A stretch of 64,000 bases of DNA from Thiomonas sp. X19 (GTDB lineage: Bacteria; Pseudomonadota; Gammaproteobacteria; Burkholderiales; Burkholderiaceae_C): positions 1,180,058 to 1,244,057 of the forward strand of contig NZ_LT605203.1 of NCBI RefSeq assembly GCF_900089495.1, read 5' to 3'. A program made the position numbers and the translations under genes. Numbering within the stretch: the first letter of the stretch is position 1; each line of letters begins with the position of its first letter. Below are positions 17,958 through 28,806 of the stretch, in pieces. The notes beneath the pieces are model-generated. The model saw only the letters and a program-made list of their open reading frames with translations, did not search any database and was not told the DNA's origin.

Positions 17958-18161
17958 ATTGAGCCGCCGGCCTCCAACCTGCCCCCCATGGTGAGGTGCC
18001 GCAGGCGCTGGCCATGCTCGAGATGGATGGGCCGCGACATGACCTGGCGTTGGCGGGTGCGCCGGGTTGCAGCCTGAGCGCAGCGGGATAATGATGATCG
18101 GCCGTCGCCCCGCCCCTTGCCCTGCAGCGCCCGCCCATCACCTGCTTTTCCTCGCCCGACC
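17958..18161. other. noncoding gap before glrK
   Basis: About 200 bases between the rlmJ-side repeat and the sensor kinase. No convincing ORF, terminator or strong promoter box is seen. It presumably carries the glrK-qseG-glrR promoter. Confidence 0.5.
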
Positions 18162-19805
18162 ATGCGCATGCCCTATCCCCGTTCCTTCTCCAGCCTCTTG
18201 CTGGCGGGCTTCGCGCTGGTGACGCTGCCGCTGCTGGCCGGGATGGCCTACACCGCCGTGGTGCAGGAGCGCCTCGCGGTGCAGACCCGGCAGTCGATCA
18301 CGCTCACGGTCAAGGTCACGCGCACCACGCGGCAGTTGGCGGAAGACATCTCCAGCCTGCAGCGTGCCGCGGGGCAGTTCTATGTGCTGCAGGACCCGCA
18401 GCTGCGCTCCGGCATGGGCGAGGCGCACGAGTCCATTCGACAGGCGCTGCAAAACCTGCGGGCCATGCCCTTCGGCCCGTCGAACACCGAACGCATCCGG
18501 CAAATCGGCCTGCGCGAAGGCGTGCTGTATGCCCAGTTGAACGATCCGGCCAATGTCGGATTGCGGCGCTTCGACTCGTTCGCCACCGAGTTCAACACCC
18601 TCGGCCGGCTGGCCGATCAGGTGGCGGTGGCGGGCAATGCCATGGTGGAGGATCAGGCGGCTTCGCTCATACGCCGCGCCCACACCCTGCGCATCGTGCT
18701 GCTGAGTCAGGCTGCGGCGGCAGTGCTGTTGTCGCTGCTCATCGCTGGTCTGTTTTCCTGGTTGCTGGGCCGGCCGGTGCACCAGATCGACCAGGCCATC
18801 CGCCGTCTCGGGGCTGGCGACCTGCAGCCCCAGCCCCGGGTGCAAGGCCCCATCGACCTGGTGTTCCTCGGCCAGCAGCTCGACTGGCTGCGCCAGCGCC
18901 TGCGCGAGCTGGACGAGCAGAAACTGCGTTTCCTGCGGCATGTTTCGCACGAGCTGAAAACCCCGCTGGCCTCGCTGCGCGAAGGTGTGGAACTGCTGGC
19001 CGACGGCGTGGGTGGCAAGCTCACGGCGCAGCAGCGCGAGATCACGCAGATCATGCGTGGCAATGCGCGCGACCTGCAGGCGCGCATCGAGAACCTCATC
19101 GGCTACAGCCGCGCCCAGCGCCAGCTCGACCCGCTGGTTTCCAGCGGTGCGGACCTCGCCGCCCTGCTCGACCAGGTGGTGCGCCGCAACGACCTGGCGC
19201 TGCGCGCCAAACATCTGCAGGTCGTGCGCAGCGGCCATGCGCCCTTGCTCAAAGCCGATCGCGGCAAGCTCGACACCCTGTTCGAGAACCTGCTGATCAA
19301 CGCCATGCGCTTCAGCCCTGAAGGCGGGAGCATTCGCATCGACCTGCGCAGTGCCGACGGCGTGGTGCACGCCACCGTGGCCGACGAGGGTCCGGGCGTG
19401 GCCGAGAACGACCGCGCCCATTTGTTCAAGCCCTTCTTCCAGGGCAGCCGCCAACCCCCGGCGGCGGCCCCTGGAAGCGGCCTGGGGCTGGCCATCGCCC
19501 AGGAATATGCGCAACTGCATGGTGGCGAAATCCAGCTGTGCGACACCCCCGATCGCCCCGGTGCCAGCTTTTGCGTCCACCTGCCGCTGCAACCCGAGCT
19601 GCCAGCCGTGGGCGCATCCGCCTGGACCACGACCATGACCACCGCCTCGACCAACGCTTCAACCACCGCCCCCCCCTCGGCCTTGGCCCCGGCCAGCCGC
19701 CGTCTGCCGGACGCCGCACCGCAGCGCAACGAGCTTGCGGACTCCAGCACGGACCCGGAAGCGGAATGGCAACCGACCCAACCCTCCAACGACACACCCT
19801 CATGA
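18162..19805 (+). CDS. glrK: sensor histidine kinase (GlrK/QseE-type)
   Basis: A 547-residue membrane histidine kinase. One helix lies at about residues 10-32, a periplasmic helical sensor domain follows, a second helix is at about 177-203 and a HAMP-like segment comes after it. The H-box FLRHVSHELKTPLASLREG has the phospho-His near residue 263. The ATP-binding domain has the N-box ENLLINAMRFS, the DEGPGV G1 box, and GSGLGLAIAQEY. The C-terminal tail of about 55 residues is Ala/Thr-rich and unusual. The stop overlaps the next gene in ATGA. Order kinase, lipoprotein, sigma-54 regulator identifies the GlrK-QseG-GlrR (QseE-G-F) system of envelope sensing. Confidence 0.9.
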   Translation: MRMPYPRSFSSLLLAGFALVTLPLLAGMAYTAVVQERLAVQTRQSITLTVKVTRTTRQLAEDISSLQRAAGQFYVLQDPQLRSGMGEAHESIRQALQNLRAMPFGPSNTERIRQIGLREGVLYAQLNDPANVGLRRFDSFATEFNTLGRLADQVAVAGNAMVEDQAASLIRRAHTLRIVLLSQAAAAVLLSLLIAGLFSWLLGRPVHQIDQAIRRLGAGDLQPQPRVQGPIDLVFLGQQLDWLRQRLRELDEQKLRFLRHVSHELKTPLASLREGVELLADGVGGKLTAQQREITQIMRGNARDLQARIENLIGYSRAQRQLDPLVSSGADLAALLDQVVRRNDLALRAKHLQVVRSGHAPLLKADRGKLDTLFENLLINAMRFSPEGGSIRIDLRSADGVVHATVADEGPGVAENDRAHLFKPFFQGSRQPPAAAPGSGLGLAIAQEYAQLHGGEIQLCDTPDRPGASFCVHLPLQPELPAVGASAWTTTMTTASTNASTTAPPSALAPASRRLPDAAPQRNELADSSTDPEAEWQPTQPSNDTPS

Positions 19806-20481
19806 ACCGACCGTTTTCTGCAACACGGATTTCAACGCGCAGCCGCAGCCCCAGGCGCTCAGGCGCAGCGCTTGCTGCCCGATGCGCCGCTGCCGCCAGC
19901 TTCGGCACGCTGGCCCTGCTGTCCGGCTGCGCGCCGCTGCCGATGCACCCCGCGCCTGGAACCGCGCCGCACGGCGAATTGCAATCGGCCCAGCCCCCCC
20001 GGGGGCAGGCCGCACCCCCCAAACCGGCGGCAACGTCCGCCGCCGTCGCCTCGCTGTTCAAGCCCGAGCCACTGAGCATGAGCTGGATTGGCGACACATT
20101 GCGCCAAATCGCGCTCGACACGCAGGCGGCGGCCAACGCCGAGCAGCAGCGGCTGCAGGCCCTGGGGGCGCAGCGCACGCCGGCCGACAAGCTCAAGCTG
20201 GCGTATTTGCTGGTGGCGCGCGCCGCGCCCACGACGGAGGAAGCCAATCAGGCACAGGACTTGCTCAGAGGACTGGATAACCAGACCGACGACCCGGCGT
20301 CCAAGCAGTTCATCCGCGTCATGCAGCGCCTGACGCGCCAGACCCTGGACCTGGCGCAACTGCGCGCCGAGCTGGCCCGCAGCAACAAACAAGTGGCCGA
20401 TCTGCAGGACAAGATCGGCCAGATCAAGAACCTGGAGGTCGAATTGCAAGATCGTGCCCAAAGCCGGCCGGGGCCGGCGAA

Positions 20482-20485
<4 letters not shown>
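19802..20485 (+). CDS. qseG: QseG-like lipoprotein
   Basis: A 227-residue predicted outer-membrane lipoprotein. A basic N-region (RISTRSRSPRR) is followed by FGTLALLSGC with the lipobox Cys at about residue 43. The mature part starts with a Pro/Ala-rich linker and continues as an all-helical domain ending in a coiled coil (LAQLRAELARSNKQVADLQD). In enterobacteria QseG sits between kinase and regulator and activates the kinase by periplasmic contact; that role is inferred here from position, lipobox and fold. Start and stop both overlap the neighbouring genes by four bases. Confidence 0.78.
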
Positions 20486-21831
<1,346 letters not shown>

Positions 21832-21868
21832 GGCCTCGGCCGCAGGCTGTCACCGGGGTTCTTCCGGG

Positions 21869-21886
21869 CGTCGCTCAGGAGCGACA
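21869..21886 (+). promoter_or_regulatory. GlrR-type binding site 1
   Basis: CGTC, ten bases, GACA: one mismatch to the GlrR consensus TGTC-N10-GACA. It is centred about 190 bases before the predicted start of the sigma-54 transcript. Confidence 0.5.
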
Positions 21887-21931
21887 AAAAAAACAATGGA
21901 AATCAGGTGTTTGCACGGATCTGGCTATAGG

Positions 21932-21949
21932 TGTCGGGCTGCGGCGACA
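21932..21949 (+). promoter_or_regulatory. GlrR-type binding site 2
   Basis: TGTC, GGGCTGCGGC, GACA: an exact match to TGTC-N10-GACA, centred about 128 bases before the predicted start, the normal distance for an NtrC-class enhancer site. Confidence 0.75.
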
Positions 21950-21951
21950 AT

Positions 21952-21969
21952 TTTCAGTATTCATGGACA
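21952..21969 (+). promoter_or_regulatory. GlrR-type binding site 3
   Basis: TTTC, ten bases, GACA: one mismatch to the consensus. It is 20 bases from site 2, so the two sites would be on the same DNA face. Confidence 0.5.
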
Positions 21970-22042
21970 GGGTTTGTGGCGGCGCACTCCGCAAGCTCGG
22001 CTCGGTAAGCACAAGCTATTGATTCAAAACATGAAAACAGCC

Positions 22043-22058
22043 TGGCACGCAAACTGCA
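22043..22058 (+). promoter_or_regulatory. sigma-54 promoter
   Basis: TGGCACGCAAACTGCA matches the sigma-54 consensus TGGCAC-R-N4-TTGCW at every fixed position except the first T of TTGC. The invariant GG and GC are separated by the required ten bases. Transcription would start near 22069, giving a leader of about 60 bases for the small exported protein. Confidence 0.85.
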
Positions 22059-22128
22059 AGTAGAGGGCATGGTTGTGTTGAATCTGTCCTCAGCACATTG
22101 TCTTCAAACCTGAATCAGGAGCGATCCG

Positions 22129-22368
22129 ATGAACCCCAACATTCTGAGCAAACCCTGGATTCCCGCCTTGGGTTTTGCTGCTGCCATCTTGCTGGCCGCG
22201 CTGATGTCCGGGCAAGCCCACGCTGCCGGCATGCCTGCCGAAACCACGGCACAGGCAGCCACCATGCAACCAACAACCTACAACGCCGCGAAGAGCGGCG
22301 CCTCCGCCCCTGACAATGCGGGTGGAAAAGCCGACAAGATGAAAAAAGAAGGCGAAAAGAAAGAATGA
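22129..22368 (+). CDS. small exported protein under sigma-54/GlrR control
   Basis: A 79-residue protein of no known family. Residues 1-33 form a clear Sec signal peptide: a short polar N-region, the hydrophobic ALGFAAAILLAALMSG, and cleavage after QAHA-AG. The mature peptide of about 46 residues is Ala/Thr/Met-rich with a strongly charged end (ADKMKKEGEKKE). A ribosome site AGGAGCG precedes the ATG. The gene lies alone between a sigma-54 promoter and a strong terminator, so it is the only protein product of that transcript. A periplasmic or secreted stress peptide is a possible role, by inference only. Confidence 0.7.
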   Translation: MNPNILSKPWIPALGFAAAILLAALMSGQAHAAGMPAETTAQAATMQPTTYNAAKSGASAPDNAGGKADKMKKEGEKKE

Positions 22369-22415
22369 ATTCGTCAGGCGCTGCCTGACCCCGGTTGTTG
22401 TCTCCTCCCCCCTTG

Positions 22416-22441
22416 GCCAAGCGCATGCTTGGCATTTTTTT
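22416..22441 (+). terminator. rho-independent terminator
   Basis: GCCAAGC, loop GCAT, GCTTGGC, then A and seven T. A perfect 7-bp stem with a U-tract ends the transcript from the sigma-54 promoter at about 370 bases. Confidence 0.92.
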
Positions 22442-22521
22442 GCGCGTCGCGCGCGCAGAAATGGCGTGAACAGGACCTGGGTTTGGCGGCTTGGGCGCGA
22501 GGCGCTGCGGCGGCCCAATGG

Positions 22522-24783
22522 TCAGGGCAGCGTCAGATCGTGGAATGACCAGATCTCGACGCGGTTGCGCCCGCGTTGCTTGGCTTGGTAGAGCGCCTTG
22601 TCGGCGCGTGCGAGCAGGTCCTCGATGCCGCGGTCGGCGGCTTCCGAGTCGGCGGCATCGGCAATGCCGATACTGACGGTGAGCTGCTGGCGCAGGGGCG
22701 CGTGGTCCATCCCCGCCGATTCCTGAACGGCCAGGCGCAGGCGCTGTGCGAAGTCGTAAGCGCGCAGTCCGTCGCAATGGGGCAGGACGATGGCGAACTC
22801 GTCGCCACCGAGACGCCCGAAGAGATCGACGCTGCGGAGCTGGGACTTGCAGACCGTGGAGAAACTGCGCAGCGCGCGATCGCCCGCCGGGTGGCCGTAA
22901 ACATCGTTGAGTTGCTTGAAGTGATCGACGTCGATGGCCAGCAGCGCCAGGTCGTGGCTCAGTCGCCGCGCCTCGTGAAACGCGGCTGAGGCCTGGGCCA
23001 GGAAATGGCGACGATTGGACACGCCGGTGAGCGAGTCGGTGTAGGCCAGTTCCTGCAGGCTCAACTCACGCTGCTTGGTGGGGGTGATGTCCTTGAAGGC
23101 GAAGATCAGCGCCTCTTCATCCTGGTAATGCGTGTGGGTGATGGACAGCAGCAGCCAGAGCAAGCTGCCGTCGAAGCGACGGAATTTGACCTCCTGCCCA
23201 CTCACGGTGCCCTCGCGCAGCACGCGCGCAATGATGGCTTCGCGCTGGCCCGGCTCGGCCCAGAGGCTGCGCATGGGTTTGCCGTGGTGCTCGGCATGGC
23301 TGGCGCGAAAGAGTTCGTCCGAGGCCCGGTTGGAGAACATCAAGCCCGAGTCGCGCAGGCGGATGATGACCAGGGGCACGGGCGACGCATCGACCAAAAA
23401 GCGAAAACGCTGCTCGTCGCGCTGCAACTGGTCTTGCAGCCGCTTGAGCTCGGAGATGTCCTGCAGACTGGTGACGATGCCCAGCGGCTTGCCGCTCGAG
23501 TCAGCCACCTGGGCCTTGTTCAGGATCCAGACCGATTCCTCGCCGTCCTCCGGCAGTTGGCGGCATTCCTGCGACAGCGGCCGTCCTTCAGCCAGCAGCT
23601 TGCGGTCCATGGCGGTCCAGGTGTGCAACAGGCTGTCTTCGAACACGTCTTCAGGCGGGCGTCCCAGCATGGCATCGTGGGTGCGCCCCAGCAGCTGGGT
23701 GAAGGCTTTGTTGATGAGCGCAAGGCGCCCGTCGTTCGCGGTGTAGGCCGTGGGGTTGGGCAGGGCGCTGAGCAAGGAGTCCTGGAAGCGCAGTTGTCGT
23801 TGCAGCCGCGTCTGGCTCTCCACCAGGGCCGCGGTGCGCCGTTCGACGGCGCGTTCCAGTCTGGCGTTGGCTTCGCGCAATTGGCGCAACGCCGCACCGC
23901 GATCCTGCGCCAGGCTGCTGGCGAGCAGAACCGTGCAGGCCAGACTGATGCCCATGACCTGCAGCGCGGTGATGCGATCCATCGGCGGCAGCGCCGTCAT
24001 CGGCCCCAGGCCCATGGTGGTGCCCGCCAACTCCAATGCGAACAGCGCGGCCATGAGCAGGCTGGAAAGACGCATGGGCAGGCGGGTTGCGGCCCAAAGC
24101 AGGGGCAACAACACCAGGGTTCCAAGACCCAGCGGCAAGGCCTGCGTCGTGGGCGGGGCAAAGTAGATGAGCACCGTGCCCAGCAGGGCAAGCACCGGGA
24201 CGCCGAGCAGTTCGGGGGTTGGCGCCGGCAATGCATCGTTGCGACGCTCCCACCACAGCACCAGGGGTGGGGCGAAGATCAGCACGCTGCAAATATCGCC
24301 GACCAGCCAGCTCAGCCACAAGCCGCCGAGGTTGTGCATCGGCGGCAAGGGTGGCAGCAGCGTTGCGAGCATGCCGCCACCGGCACTGAACGCAGGAGCC
24401 AGCAGACCGAGCGTGACGATGAAGGCCAGCGTATTGCCTGTGCCTTGCAAGCCTGTCCATGGCCGGCGCAGGCGTTGCAACAGCCACCAGGCGATGAGCA
24501 CACCAACCGTGTTGCCCGTCGCGATGCACAGGGCTGCCAGCGGCGACCAGCCGACACTGAATGCATTGGCCAGGTAAGCGCCCAGCGCAATGCCTGGAGC
24601 GGCGGCCCAACCGCCAACCATGACGCCGAAAACGGCCACGGCACTGGAGGGCCAGAGCAACGCGCCTGCTGCGCCACTGCGCATCACCAACCACGCCAGC
24701 AGCACGTAGACGCCCGCCAGCGCAGCGTTGAACAGCAGCAGCTTGGACAGGCGCTGCAGTGCGGCTCTGGCGGGTGCCTGCAT
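22522..24783 (-). CDS. MASE1-PAS-PAS-GGDEF diguanylate cyclase
   Basis: A 753-residue membrane protein that probably makes c-di-GMP. Residues about 10-295 hold some eight hydrophobic helices of MASE1 type (LLWPSSAVAVFGVMVGGW is characteristic). Next come a coiled-coil linker (REANARLERAVERRTAALVE) and two PAS domains. The GGDEF domain has DSLTGVSNRRHFL, IDVDHFKQLND and an intact GRLGGDEFAIVLP. The inhibitory I-site RSVD is at the right distance, so product feedback is expected. The start is uncertain: an ATG 39 bases upstream is also in frame and the open frame goes further. It is encoded downstream of ndh on the same strand, about 300 bases away. Confidence 0.88.
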   Translation of the reverse strand: MQAPARAALQRLSKLLLFNAALAGVYVLLAWLVMRSGAAGALLWPSSAVAVFGVMVGGWAAAPGIALGAYLANAFSVGWSPLAALCIATGNTVGVLIAWWLLQRLRRPWTGLQGTGNTLAFIVTLGLLAPAFSAGGGMLATLLPPLPPMHNLGGLWLSWLVGDICSVLIFAPPLVLWWERRNDALPAPTPELLGVPVLALLGTVLIYFAPPTTQALPLGLGTLVLLPLLWAATRLPMRLSSLLMAALFALELAGTTMGLGPMTALPPMDRITALQVMGISLACTVLLASSLAQDRGAALRQLREANARLERAVERRTAALVESQTRLQRQLRFQDSLLSALPNPTAYTANDGRLALINKAFTQLLGRTHDAMLGRPPEDVFEDSLLHTWTAMDRKLLAEGRPLSQECRQLPEDGEESVWILNKAQVADSSGKPLGIVTSLQDISELKRLQDQLQRDEQRFRFLVDASPVPLVIIRLRDSGLMFSNRASDELFRASHAEHHGKPMRSLWAEPGQREAIIARVLREGTVSGQEVKFRRFDGSLLWLLLSITHTHYQDEEALIFAFKDITPTKQRELSLQELAYTDSLTGVSNRRHFLAQASAAFHEARRLSHDLALLAIDVDHFKQLNDVYGHPAGDRALRSFSTVCKSQLRSVDLFGRLGGDEFAIVLPHCDGLRAYDFAQRLRLAVQESAGMDHAPLRQQLTVSIGIADAADSEAADRGIEDLLARADKALYQAKQRGRNRVEIWSFHDLTLP

Positions 24784-25081
24784 ATCAGCCGTGTCCCGGC
24801 ACGACAAACTGCGGGAAAGCATGGCGCCGAGCCATGAGCGCCGGCTTGCCCTGCAAGGGGGACGCGCACGCGGTCCACAGCTGGCGGCGGGCAGCAGCCA
24901 GCTGCGATGCCTGGCGAGTGCCCGAAGTTGGGCGGATGTTCCCAATTTGCACGTTATCGTTCTTGTCTGGATTTTTCTACAGCATACCGAACAGTTCGCG
25001 CAGAAAAACCTGACAATCAGGGCGAAGCACTCGTCACCGATCACCCGTGTGCTCGATGCAACAGCACCCGCTAGGCTTCTC

Positions 25082-26422
25082 TCAATGCAACTTGATGCGC
25101 GGTTCGGTCGTGCGCGAGATCAGACGTGCCAGCGTGAGGAAGGCGGTTTTCCAGAAGCCATGCAAGGCATGCAGATGCTTGCGATAGAGCAGCCAGTAGA
25201 TGAACCTGGCGAAATGGCCTTCGATGAACAGGCTGCCCTTGGCCAAGCCGCCCATCAAGCTGCCCACGGTGCTGTGCTCGCCCAGGGAAACGAGGGAGCC
25301 GAAATCGCGGTAGTGGAAGGCGCGCAGCGGCTTGCTGGTGCACCGACGTTGAATTTGCCGCGCCAGAAAACTGGCCTGCTGGTGGGCGGCCTGGGCGCGT
25401 GGCGGCACACCGCCGGGGTGGCCTTCCCAGGGGCAGGCGGCGCAATCGCCCAGGGCAAAAATGGCGTCGTCGCGCGTGGTCTGCAAAGTGGGGCGGACCA
25501 CCAACTGGTTGATGCGGTTGCTTTCCAATCCATCGAGATCGCGCAGCACGTCGGGGGCTTTCACACCTGCGGCCCACACCACGAGTTCTGCCGGCAGAAA
25601 GTCGCCATCGGCCGTTTGCACCCCGGTCGCGGTGACGGCGGTGACGCGTTTGCCGGTGTGAATCTGCACGCCCAGCTTGGCGAGTTCGGCCGCTGCCGCC
25701 GTCGACACGCGCTCTGACAACGCGGGCAGGATGCGCGGAGCGGCCTCCACCAGGCTCAGGCGCATATCGCGTTCGGGGTCGATGCGATCCAGCCCGTAGG
25801 CGGCCAGCGTGCGGGTGGAGTTGTGCAGCTCGGCCACCAGTTCCACCCCGGTGGCGCCGGCGCCGATGGCCACCACCTTGAGTTGCTCCGGCCGCAGCGG
25901 GCCGGTTTGCGTGTTGGCGGCAATGCAGGCGTTGACCAGGCGCTTGTGGAAGCGCCGCGCGTCTTCAGGGCTGTCGAGGGCGATCGCGTACTCCGCTGCG
26001 CCGGGGGTGCCGAAGTCGTTGTTCTGGCTGCCCAGCGCCAGCACCAGGATGTCGTAGCCGAAGCTGCGGCGCGGCACGATTTCGCGCCCGTCCTCGTCCA
26101 GCGTCGGCGCCACCAGCACCTGTTTGCGGGCGCGGTCCAGCCCGTCCATCGCGCCCAGGCGGTACTTGAAGTGATGCCAGGTGGACTGCGCCAGGTAGTT
26201 CAGCTCGTTGTCGTCGATGTCGAGGGTGCCAGCAGCGGCCTGGTGCAGCAGCGGTTTCCACAAATGACTGCGACCGCGCTCGACCAGGGTGATGTCGGCG
26301 TGTCCGCGCCGGCCCAGGGTGTTGCCCAGGCGGGTGGCCAGTTCCAGCCCGCCGGCACCGCCGCCGACGATGACGATGCGTGGCAAGGAGGATGCCGGGG
26401 ATGCGTCGGTTTGTGAGTCCAT
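25082..26422 (-). CDS. ndh: type II NADH dehydrogenase
   Basis: A 446-residue FAD-dependent NADH:quinone oxidoreductase (NDH-2), peripheral on the inner face of the membrane and non-proton-pumping. The FAD-binding motif is IVIVGGGAGGLELATRLG, the NADH-binding motif is VVAIGAGATGVELVAEL, and the second FAD segment is AIFALGDCAACP. The C-terminal part with GHFARFIYWLLYRKHL and the basic tail is the membrane-anchoring region. The ATG chosen gives the ordinary start, MDSQTD, before the Rossmann motif; an upstream in-frame start would add 38 unconserved residues. Confidence 0.92.
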   Translation of the reverse strand: MDSQTDASPASSLPRIVIVGGGAGGLELATRLGNTLGRRGHADITLVERGRSHLWKPLLHQAAAGTLDIDDNELNYLAQSTWHHFKYRLGAMDGLDRARKQVLVAPTLDEDGREIVPRRSFGYDILVLALGSQNNDFGTPGAAEYAIALDSPEDARRFHKRLVNACIAANTQTGPLRPEQLKVVAIGAGATGVELVAELHNSTRTLAAYGLDRIDPERDMRLSLVEAAPRILPALSERVSTAAAAELAKLGVQIHTGKRVTAVTATGVQTADGDFLPAELVVWAAGVKAPDVLRDLDGLESNRINQLVVRPTLQTTRDDAIFALGDCAACPWEGHPGGVPPRAQAAHQQASFLARQIQRRCTSKPLRAFHYRDFGSLVSLGEHSTVGSLMGGLAKGSLFIEGHFARFIYWLLYRKHLHALHGFWKTAFLTLARLISRTTEPRIKLH

Positions 26423-26558
26423 GGTTTCTGGATTGTTGTTGGTCTTTGCAAGCGTACTGCGCATTGTGCGAAAAATGGGGCCTGCAAGGAAACACAGGCT
26501 CGCCCGGCGATGTTGCCGGGGCGCTGGCTGGCGCACAATCTCGGCTTGGGCACTTTAG

Positions 26559-26719
26559 GGCGACGCTGAACAAGCCCCTCGTGCGCATCGCATCCGCGCC
26601 TCGGGCGGTCTGCGGCGTTGCAAATCCGCGCCATAGCTTGGGCTATGGCTGTGGTTTGCGCCTTGCATCCCATCCCGATGCGCGGCGCGCTGCATCACGA
26701 GAACTGACTCAGCGTCGCC
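26559..26719. repeat. 161-bp palindromic element upstream of the helicase
   Basis: The ends are perfect inverted repeats (GGCGACGCTGA and TCAGCGTCGCC). Inside them are partly matching arms (CGTGCGCATCGCATCCGCGC against GATGCGCGGCGCGCTGCATC). At the centre is CCATAGC, TTG, GGCTATGG. The whole could fold into one long hairpin. It looks like a miniature inverted-repeat element and lies 41 bases before deaD, in its leader or promoter. Confidence 0.75.
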
Positions 26720-26760
26720 TTGGCGCCCCTTTCATTCACCGTCATCAGGTTCATCCATCC

Positions 26761-28806
26761 ATGTCCAGCACCGCCCCCGAGTCTCCCGCCGTCACCTTCG
26801 CCGATCTCGGTCTGCCGGAGCCCATCCTCGCAGCGCTGCGCGACGTGGGTTACGAAAGCCCGTCGCCGATTCAGGCGGCCACCATCCCCATTCTGCTCGA
26901 AGGCCGCGACCTGGTTGGCCAGGCGCAAACCGGCACCGGCAAGACGGCGGCCTTCGCCCTGCCCATCCTCGCCCGCATCGACGTGGCGCGCAAGGAGCCG
27001 CAGGCGCTGGTGCTGGCGCCCACGCGCGAACTCGCCATCCAGGTGGCCGAGGCCTTTGCCACCTACGCCATGCACCTGCCGGGCTTCAACGTGCTGCCCA
27101 TTTACGGCGGCCAAAGTTATGTGCCGCAGCTGGCCTCGCTCAAGCGCGGCGCGCATGTCGTGGTGGGTACGCCCGGGCGCATCATCGACCATCTGGAACG
27201 CGGCACGCTGAAGCTCGACGGCCTGGCCCATATGGTGCTGGATGAAGCCGACGAAATGCTGCGCATGGGCTTCATCGACGATGTCGAATCCATCCTGCAG
27301 AAAACCCCGCCCACACGCCAGGTCGCGCTGTTCTCGGCCACCATGCCGCAGGCCATTCGCCGCATTGCCAGCAACCATTTGCGCACGCCGGCGGAGGTCA
27401 CCATCAAGGCCAAGACCAGCACCGCCACGCAAGTGCAGCAGCGCTACTGGATGGTCAGCGGCCTGCACAAGCTCGACGCGCTGACCCGCATTCTGGAGGT
27501 GGAGAGCTTCGATGGCATGATCGTTTTCGCCCGCACCAAAATGGCCACCGAAGAGCTGGCCGAGAAGCTGGCGGCGCGCGGTTTCTCCACCGCCGCGCTG
27601 AACGGCGACATCCTGCAGGCGCAGCGCGAGCGCACCGTGCAGCGGCTGAAAGACGGGCAGATCGACATCCTGGTGGCCACCGACGTGGCCGCGCGCGGAC
27701 TGGATGTGGACCGCATCAGCCATGTGGTGAACTACGACATCCCGACCGATACCGAAAGCTATGTCCACCGCATTGGCCGCACCGGACGCGCCGGGCGCAG
27801 CGGCCAGGCCATTTTGTTCGTCACGCCGCGCGAGCGCCATCTGCTGGCCGCCATCGAGCGCGCCACGCGCCAGCCCATCACACCGATGCAATTGCCCAGC
27901 CCGCAGGACGTGAACGACAAGCGCATTTCCCGCTTCCTGGAGCGCATCACCGAGGCGCGCGAGCAGGAAGGCCTGGAGCAGTTCCAGAGCCTGATCGAAC
28001 GCTACGAGCAGGAACAGAACGTGCCGGCCATTGAAATTGCCGCTGCCCTGGCGCGCATGGTGCAGGGCGACAAACCCCTGCTGCTGGGGCCGGGTACCGA
28101 GGGCGGCCATGCGATGCGCAGCGACAGCCTGGGCGCACGCGGGCGCGCTGCGCAGCGCGCCGAGCCCACCTTCGGTCCGCGCGGAAAACCCGCCAAGCCC
28201 TTCGAGCGCGAGGTGCGCAAGCCTTCGCCATCGTTGCCTCCGCGCGAGCCCAAGCCCGCCAGCGCCAAGCCACGCGGCCTGACCGACATCGCCGACGCCG
28301 CCATCGGCGAACTGGAAGCACGGGTGCAGTCGGCGCGCTTCGAGAAGTCGCATCCCGGCTTCGAGCCGGACGACCACGGCAGCGCCGCGCCGCGCCGCAA
28401 GAAGGCCGCCGCGGGCGACATGGCTTTCGAGACGTATCGCGTCGAGGTCGGCCGCGACCATGGGGTGGAGGTGCGCAATCTGGTCGGCGCCATCGCCAAT
28501 GAAGCCGGGCTGGAAAACAAGCACATCGGCAGCATCGACATTCGCGGCGACCATAGCCTGGTGGACCTGCCCGCAGGCATGCCCAAGGATGTGTTTCGCA
28601 CCCTGCAAAAAGTCTGGGTCCTGGGCCACCAGCTCAACTTGAGCCTGGCCGGAGCGGGCGGCGGTGCGGCGTTCAAGCCGCCGGCTCCAGCCAAACCCAG
28701 GGCCGCAGCCGGCACCACGCGGCCAACCCTGCGCGCCACCGAGCGCGCGCCCAGCCGCAAAGGCCCGGGCGCCGATTCGCCCAAGCGCAAGCCGATCCGA
28801 CGTTGA
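26761..28806 (+). CDS. deaD: DEAD-box RNA helicase (DeaD/CsdA-like)
   Basis: A 681-residue ATP-dependent RNA helicase for ribosome assembly and mRNA decay, often cold-induced. Motifs in order: FADLGLPEPI and SPIQAATIP (Q motif), AQTGTGKTAAFALP (I), PTRELAIQ (Ia), VLDEADEML (II), SATMP (III), DVAARGLDVDR (V) and HRIGRTGRAGRSG (VI). A Lys/Pro-rich linker of about 110 residues follows. Then comes a DbpA-like RNA-binding domain (YRVEVGRDHGVEVRNLVGAI, HSLVDLPAGMP) and a basic tail. The start MSSTAP is preceded by the palindromic element. Confidence 0.92.
   Translation: MSSTAPESPAVTFADLGLPEPILAALRDVGYESPSPIQAATIPILLEGRDLVGQAQTGTGKTAAFALPILARIDVARKEPQALVLAPTRELAIQVAEAFATYAMHLPGFNVLPIYGGQSYVPQLASLKRGAHVVVGTPGRIIDHLERGTLKLDGLAHMVLDEADEMLRMGFIDDVESILQKTPPTRQVALFSATMPQAIRRIASNHLRTPAEVTIKAKTSTATQVQQRYWMVSGLHKLDALTRILEVESFDGMIVFARTKMATEELAEKLAARGFSTAALNGDILQAQRERTVQRLKDGQIDILVATDVAARGLDVDRISHVVNYDIPTDTESYVHRIGRTGRAGRSGQAILFVTPRERHLLAAIERATRQPITPMQLPSPQDVNDKRISRFLERITEAREQEGLEQFQSLIERYEQEQNVPAIEIAAALARMVQGDKPLLLGPGTEGGHAMRSDSLGARGRAAQRAEPTFGPRGKPAKPFEREVRKPSPSLPPREPKPASAKPRGLTDIADAAIGELEARVQSARFEKSHPGFEPDDHGSAAPRRKKAAAGDMAFETYRVEVGRDHGVEVRNLVGAIANEAGLENKHIGSIDIRGDHSLVDLPAGMPKDVFRTLQKVWVLGHQLNLSLAGAGGGAAFKPPAPAKPRAAAGTTRPTLRATERAPSRKGPGADSPKRKPIRR

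What the first reader, a model, noticed from the sequence alone, without database searches (positions are those of the whole stretch)
21832..22441. A GlrR/sigma-54 regulon unit that makes a small exported protein, next to glrK-qseG-glrR
Directly after a sigma-54 activator gene there is a near-perfect sigma-54 promoter (22043-22058). Upstream of it lie three TGTC-N10-GACA-type sites (21869, 21932 exact, 21952), at the distance used by NtrC-class enhancers. The transcript ends at a strong terminator (22416-22441) and has room for only one 79-aa ORF with a Sec signal and a Lys/Glu tail. In enterobacteria GlrR uses the same site form to drive the sRNA GlmY; here the target seems to be a small envelope or secreted protein, or a transcript with both RNA and protein roles. 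I know no description of this output.
Basis: partly seen in the sequence, partly recalled or inferred. Interest (0 to 1): 0.8.

Follow-up and report, generated by a model that had tools for sequence, protein, structure and literature searches.

The report
GlrR-driven RNA beside glrR in Thiomonas
Next to a bacterial envelope-sensing regulator lies a switchable gene that probably makes a small regulatory RNA and, in this bacterium, also a tiny exported protein; the RNA end is the part that evolution keeps fixed.

Summary
The genus is Thiomonas. In 27 of 27 genus genomes with glrR, a sigma-54 promoter (<=1 mismatch) and a GlrR-type box follow glrR (promoter control mean 0.2 of 27). The exported-protein ORF is real but fast-evolving, and absent in 6 of 27 genomes, on 2-3 branches, which keep promoter, box and 3' module with predicted transcripts of only 71-144 nt. 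So the constant product is most simply a small RNA with an unpaired C-run before its terminator, and here a dual-function transcript. Outside the genus 39 of 70 glrR loci of the order have such a promoter; one other family shows a different short RNA there. Expression, Hfq and targets are untested; glmS is not supported. New variant of the GlmY kind of arrangement.

The parts
18117..19805 (+). glrK-like sensor kinase ORF (ATG possible at 18162)
   Evidence: HisKA, HATPase_c, HAMP; no NCBIfam model over its cut-off, so the name glrK rests on synteny
19802..20485 (+). qseG-like lipoprotein ORF
   Evidence: no Pfam or NCBIfam match; lipobox-like LLSGC seen in the translation; name by synteny
20482..21831 (+). 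glrR-like sigma-54 response regulator
   Evidence: receiver and Sigma54_activat domains; best NCBIfam GlrR 584.6 bits, cut-off 763
21869..21886 (+). distal GlrR-type box (1 mismatch), -174 from the promoter
   Evidence: same place in relatives
21932..21949 (+). proximal GlrR-type box (exact), -111 from the promoter
   Evidence: box pair 63-64 bp apart in 22 of 27 genus loci
22012..22024 (+). IHF-consensus-like site CAAGCTATTGATT
   Evidence: YAANNNNTTGATW (consensus recalled): exact in 11, <=1 mismatch in 21 of 27 loci
22043..22058 (+). sigma-54 promoter; transcript start expected near 22069 (inferred from usual spacing)
22129..22368 (+). 79-aa exported protein ORF, signal sequence ending AHA|AGMP (cleavage inferred)
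   Evidence: profile match at the glrR locus in 21 of 28 genus genomes; dN<dS in 17 of 17 pairs
22407..22415 (+). CCCCCCTTG, unpaired stretch, proposed pairing region
   Evidence: 27 of 27 identical; unpaired in predicted folds
22416..22441 (+). terminator hairpin GCCAAGC-GCAT-GCTTGGC, A, T7
   Evidence: stem and T7 27 of 27 identical, A 26 of 27, loop in 9 variants

Best explanation
A GlrR/sigma-54-controlled RNA gene directly after glrR. Supported by comparison: a pair of GlrR-type boxes, often an IHF-like site, and a sigma-54 promoter precede a transcript that ends in an invariant module (C6UUG, terminator hairpin, U7). Inferred: on an envelope signal the kinase and QseG-like lipoprotein lead to phosphorylated GlrR, which opens the promoter; the RNA, or a 3' piece cut from it, is a small regulatory RNA that pairs through the unpaired C-run with G-rich stretches such as ribosome-binding sites, probably with Hfq on the U-tail. 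In this strain the same transcript of about 373 nt also encodes a 79-aa exported protein, so it would be a dual-function RNA; in 6 of 27 relatives only the RNA is left.
For: Promoter and box in 27 of 27 genus loci. 3' module letter-identical in 27 of 27 but for loop and one A; core word once in each of 27 of 28 genomes, the 28th lacking a GlrR match. Unchanged beside three kinds of downstream neighbour. Six genomes without the ORF keep promoter, box and module with predicted transcripts of 132, 144, 76, 76, 71 and 102 nt. C-run unpaired in the predicted folds of four short forms and of the window's long form. Own genome: of 11 strict sigma-54 sites only this one has the box pair. E. coli GlrR (QseF) uses TGTN12ACA sites and IHF at the sigma-54 promoter of the sRNA gene glmY, next to the same operon (PMC6075780, passages).
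Against: No expression data. The stem never varies, so there is no covariation support. The four short forms do not fold better than shuffles to a striking degree (z -0.78, -1.67, -0.83, -1.98). No Rfam match. No target found: glmS not supported, a narrow G-run scan gave no universal gene. No terminator control set could be made, so part of the conservation might be that of a terminator. The ORF does show coding selection, so the protein also matters where present.
Confidence: 0.66

Rival explanations
1. One reading: an ordinary GlrR/sigma-54 mRNA for a small exported envelope protein; the 3' end is only its terminator.
For: ORF in 21 of 27 glrR-bearing genus genomes, dN<dS in 17 of 17 pairs; invariant AxAAGMP; outside the genus the slot often holds small exported or membrane proteins, judged by eye, with Pfam support in two cases.
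Against: 6 of 27 genomes keep promoter, box and 3' module without the ORF; C6UUG lies outside the terminator stem and is invariant; the ORF evolves much faster than glrR.
Confidence: 0.2
2. The 3' module is a DNA-level element, such as a palindromic protein-binding site or a transcription roadblock, rather than part of a working RNA.
For: CTTGGCCAAG is a perfect palindrome and the stem letters never vary.
Against: One copy per genome, at the end of this transcript in 27 of 27 loci, beside three kinds of neighbour; the C-run lies outside the palindrome; a T-run for termination follows in 27 of 27.
Confidence: 0.07
3. A working equivalent of GlmY/GlmZ that controls glmS with RapZ.
For: Same regulator type, boxes, IHF-like site and adjacency to the operon as glmY; glmS over the family cut-off in 20 of 28 and a RapZ-like N-terminal domain in 27 of 28 genus genomes (several genomes are incomplete).
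Against: No Rfam match. Of 21 glmS upstream regions read, only one (L093) has a run of four or more G within 40 nt of the start; the G-runs at -124 and -88 lie far upstream (duplex energies there had no shuffle control).
Confidence: 0.07

Closest known systems
GlmY, enterobacterial sRNA under QseF (GlrR) and sigma-54
   Same: sigma-54 promoter, GlrR-type boxes, IHF-like site, next to the glrK-qseG-glrR operon
   Different: lies after glrR, not before the kinase gene; no Rfam match; has a C6 run; carries a protein ORF in 21 of 27 genomes; no glmS link seen
Bordetella S17 sRNA (PMC11722255, passages)
   Same: short 3' form with a C/U-rich stretch and terminator, cut from a longer transcript that holds a small ORF; conserved in betaproteobacteria
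   Different: another locus (between a glycosyltransferase gene and coq7), sigma-A promoter; its letters were not in the text that I saw, so no sequence comparison was made
NcS25 sRNA of Burkholderia cenocepacia (PMC10117139, passages)
   Same: short sRNA of the order with a pairing region for a Shine-Dalgarno sequence
   Different: the paper reports no sigma-54 motif before it; different genomic context
Other glrR-downstream sigma-54 units in Burkholderiales
   Same: promoter (<=1 mismatch) within 700 nt after glrR in 39 of 70 loci, box (<=1 mismatch) in 35 of these 39
   Different: other products, such as MdoG and a glycine-zipper protein; an unnamed family (f23) has another short RNA with RAGAGUGCGCCUUG

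Membership tests
GlrR/QseF sigma-54 regulon unit | regulator is a GlrR orthologue | tested here: inconclusive
   best NCBIfam model GlrR, 584.6 bits, under the cut-off 763
GlrR/QseF sigma-54 regulon unit | sigma-54 promoter (GG-N10-GC) | tested here: met
   22043-22058; 27 of 27 genus loci, control mean 0.2
GlrR/QseF sigma-54 regulon unit | several TGTC-N10-GACA-type upstream sites | tested here: met
   two conserved sites; pair in 22 of 27 loci, at least one in 27 of 27 with <=1 mismatch; E. coli glmY has three
GlrR/QseF sigma-54 regulon unit | binding by GlrR and dependence on rpoN | not testable with these tools
   needs footprinting and mutants
GlmY sRNA family | sequence and structure match to the known family | tested here: not met
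   no Rfam match in the window at gathering score nor in 8 loci up to E=1
GlmY sRNA family | acts through RapZ/GlmZ on glmS | tested here: inconclusive
   glmS and RapZ-like genes present; no conserved G-run near the glmS start
Hfq-dependent trans-acting sRNA | intrinsic terminator with U-tail and an unpaired conserved pairing region | tested here: met
Hfq-dependent trans-acting sRNA | Hfq binding | not testable with these tools
   no experiment; the hfq gene itself was not searched for
Hfq-dependent trans-acting sRNA | conserved target mRNAs | tested here: inconclusive
   narrow scan only: 40 sites fetched, one related pair, in close relatives
Dual-function RNA | one transcript with a coding part under selection and an RNA part under selection | tested here: met
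   dN<dS in 17 of 17 ORF pairs; invariant 3' module also without the ORF; the function of either part is not shown

The most novel reading that the evidence does not exclude
The position after glrR is an order-wide GlrR/sigma-54 output slot whose product switches in evolution between small envelope proteins and small RNAs. Thiomonas shows the switch in progress: a dual-function transcript whose coding half was lost 2-3 times while its C-rich RNA half stayed frozen; another Burkholderiales family reached an RNA output with other letters.
Probability: 0.5. Interest if true: 0.75.

Novelty: new variant of a known kind. Interest (0 to 1): 0.62.

Why it matters
GlrR is known mainly through glmY and rpoE in enterobacteria. 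In the listings of my searches (open-licence papers only) I saw no description of its output in betaproteobacteria. A once-per-genome RNA with an invariant unpaired C-run gives a direct handle on what this envelope circuit controls there, and a natural series of coding and non-coding forms of one transcript to study how dual-function RNAs gain and lose a half.

Tried and rejected
Third box at 21952: rejected, at that place in none of the other 26 genus rows. GlmY relation by Rfam: none. glmS as target: of 21 upstream regions read, one has a G4 run near the start. Target scan: AAGGGGGG-N3-11-ATG occurs in 28 of 28 genus genomes, the listing was cut short; 40 sites were fetched; 25 of them opened a frame of 30 aa or more, and only one pair was related, between G000 and its near relative G001. 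This is too narrow to exclude targets. Other strict sigma-54 sites of the own genome: 10 besides the window's were read; two have a one-mismatch box-like word 232-241 bp upstream (L083, L089), none an exact box or the pair. Three module-pattern hits outside Thiomonas (two Verrucomicrobia, one Pseudomonas): no T-run after the stem and no box within 600 bp upstream; one has a loosely promoter-like word with the wrong spacing; taken as chance. Control terminators after glmS: none found in 16 readable loci, so no control. 'Lost' assumes that the ORF is ancestral in the genus; the tree has open forks, so 2 and 3 losses cannot be told apart. L029 has the AAGMP frame but only a GTG start was seen. 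One search read loci of minus-strand matches in the wrong orientation; it was redone as and only one search is used.

Full report
Observation. The names glrK and qseG for the two genes before it rest on synteny: the kinase has HisKA/HATPase domains but no NCBIfam model over its cut-off, and the middle gene has no match. Single promoter-like or box-like words are weak evidence in 64 kb (37 sites against 28.1 expected; 26 boxes against 17.9 expected), so conservation had to decide.

Conservation in the genus. A GlrR match (E<=1e-120) exists in 27 of 28 genomes of the window's genus, own included, and in 38 of 60 genomes searched. In 27 of 27 loci a promoter with <=1 mismatch begins 150-347 bp after the glrR stop; shuffled (first-order Markov) copies give a mean of 0.2 of 27, maximum 2 in 50 runs. 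Exact boxes are seen in 24 of 27, boxes with <=1 mismatch in 27 of 27; two boxes 63-64 bp apart in 22 of 27, only the distal one in 4, only the proximal one in 1. An IHF-consensus site (consensus recalled) begins 31-44 bp before the promoter, exact in 11 and with <=1 mismatch in 21 of 27. In E. [quoted passage not shown] Among 11 strict sigma-54 sites of the own genome only this one has the box pair.

The RNA end. CCCCCCTTGGCCAAGC-loop-GCTTGGC-(A)-T7 is identical in all 27 loci at every column except one A (26 of 27) and the loop (9 variants), while flanking columns agree in 10-26 of 27. The 15-letter word CCCCCTTGGCCAAGC occurs exactly once in 27 of 28 genus genomes; one search finds it after glrR in each of these 27; the 28th (G016) has no GlrR match at the E-value used. 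In a scan of 84,980 species genomes the longer pattern hit 28 stretches, 25 of them these loci and 3 chance-like; the tool says that near relatives of the window may be left out there. C6UUG is outside the terminator stem, and the stem shows no compensatory change, so the letters themselves seem selected. I had no set of other terminators to compare with. The module is unchanged beside three kinds of downstream neighbour: GGDEF gene 4, convergent gene like the window's 25082-26536 (an oxidoreductase by look) 8, DEAD-box helicase 15 (labels by motif and by similarity of termini).

The ORF. A one-sequence search finds it in 8 of 60 genomes, all same genus, own included; a 12-row profile finds it at the glrR locus in 21 of 28 genus genomes. 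A search of about 5.8 billion proteins gave 11 matches, none with a Pfam domain, the only given name 'hypothetical protein' (only 7987 candidates scored). A-x-A-A-G-M-P is invariant in 12 aligned rows. dN is below dS in 17 of 17 pairs: ratio about 0.07-0.33 in the 9 pairs of the window's clade and its sister, about 0.5-0.8 in the 8 other pairs; glrR in the same pairs is at about 0.15 or below. So it is coding, but evolves fast. These are short frames (50-93 codons) and the ratios are rough.

ORF-less genomes. In 6 of 27 (G014, G010, G024, G022, G012, G019) the predicted start-to-terminator length is only 132, 144, 76, 76, 71 and 102 nt and the profile finds no frame at the locus. Elsewhere in these six there are only weak matches (E 6e-4 to 1.3e-3) in G010, G014 and G019. 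All six keep a promoter with <=1 mismatch and a box with <=1 mismatch and the module. On the GlrR tree they sit in three places, two of which are not firmly separated. Selection on a promoter and 3' end without the frame points to RNA as a product. Four of these RNAs were folded: UCCCCCCUUG is unpaired in all four, between a 5' fold and the terminator hairpin; overall stability is not striking (z -0.78, -1.67, -0.83, -1.98). In the window's 373-nt form UCUCCUCCCCCCUUG is unpaired too (z -2.53). Start sites are inferred from usual sigma-54 spacing.

Beyond the genus. Of 70 glrR loci of the order outside the genus (11, 59 more; a few genomes give two), 39 have a promoter with <=1 mismatch within 700 nt after glrR (control mean 0.54, maximum 2), and 35 of these 39 have a box with <=1 mismatch upstream. 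31 of 70 have none at that stringency. Of four following frames tried against Pfam, one is MdoG and one a glycine-zipper protein; two (as N-terminal parts) had no match; by eye many others begin with a signal or membrane stretch, which I did not count. In one unnamed family (f23) seven loci read (G057, G148, G187, G199, G200, G203, G209) share RAGAGUGCGCCUUG just before a terminator after glrR; the strict promoter test is passed by G057 and G148, the others show by eye a two-mismatch site (G187), TGGCAT-type sites (G199, G203, G209) or none (G200). Of the 19 f23 genomes, 12 others were not read at this place.

Mechanism. Most likely: a signal through kinase and lipoprotein, GlrR-P with IHF activates sigma-54 polymerase, and the RNA or its 3' end pairs by its C-run with G-rich stretches, such as ribosome-binding sites. 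The control part is well supported by sequence; RNA as a product is an inference from the ORF-less forms; pairing, Hfq and targets are unproven. glmS is not supported as a target although glmS and RapZ-like genes are present. Bordetella S17 shows that a 3' C/U-rich piece of a small-ORF transcript can act on mRNAs in this class (PMC11722255, passages).

Verdict.

Noticed in passing
L079, L169, L180, L225, L226, L228, L231 (unnamed family f23): A different short RNA after glrR, with conserved RAGAGUGCGCCUUG before a terminator and C/U-rich letters upstream.
   Followed up: partly
L037 (G032), downstream of glrR: The sigma-54 promoter with a GlrR-type box precedes an mdoG gene (periplasmic glucan synthesis), suggesting another envelope output of GlrR.
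   Followed up: partly
window 22442-28806 and relatives: The stretch between the RNA module and the DEAD-box helicase gene varies: in relatives the GGDEF gene, or both it and the oxidoreductase-like gene, are not next to the module.
   Followed up: no
G016 (genus member, 91% complete): Lacks both a GlrR match and the RNA module: loss of the whole circuit or an assembly gap.
   Followed up: no
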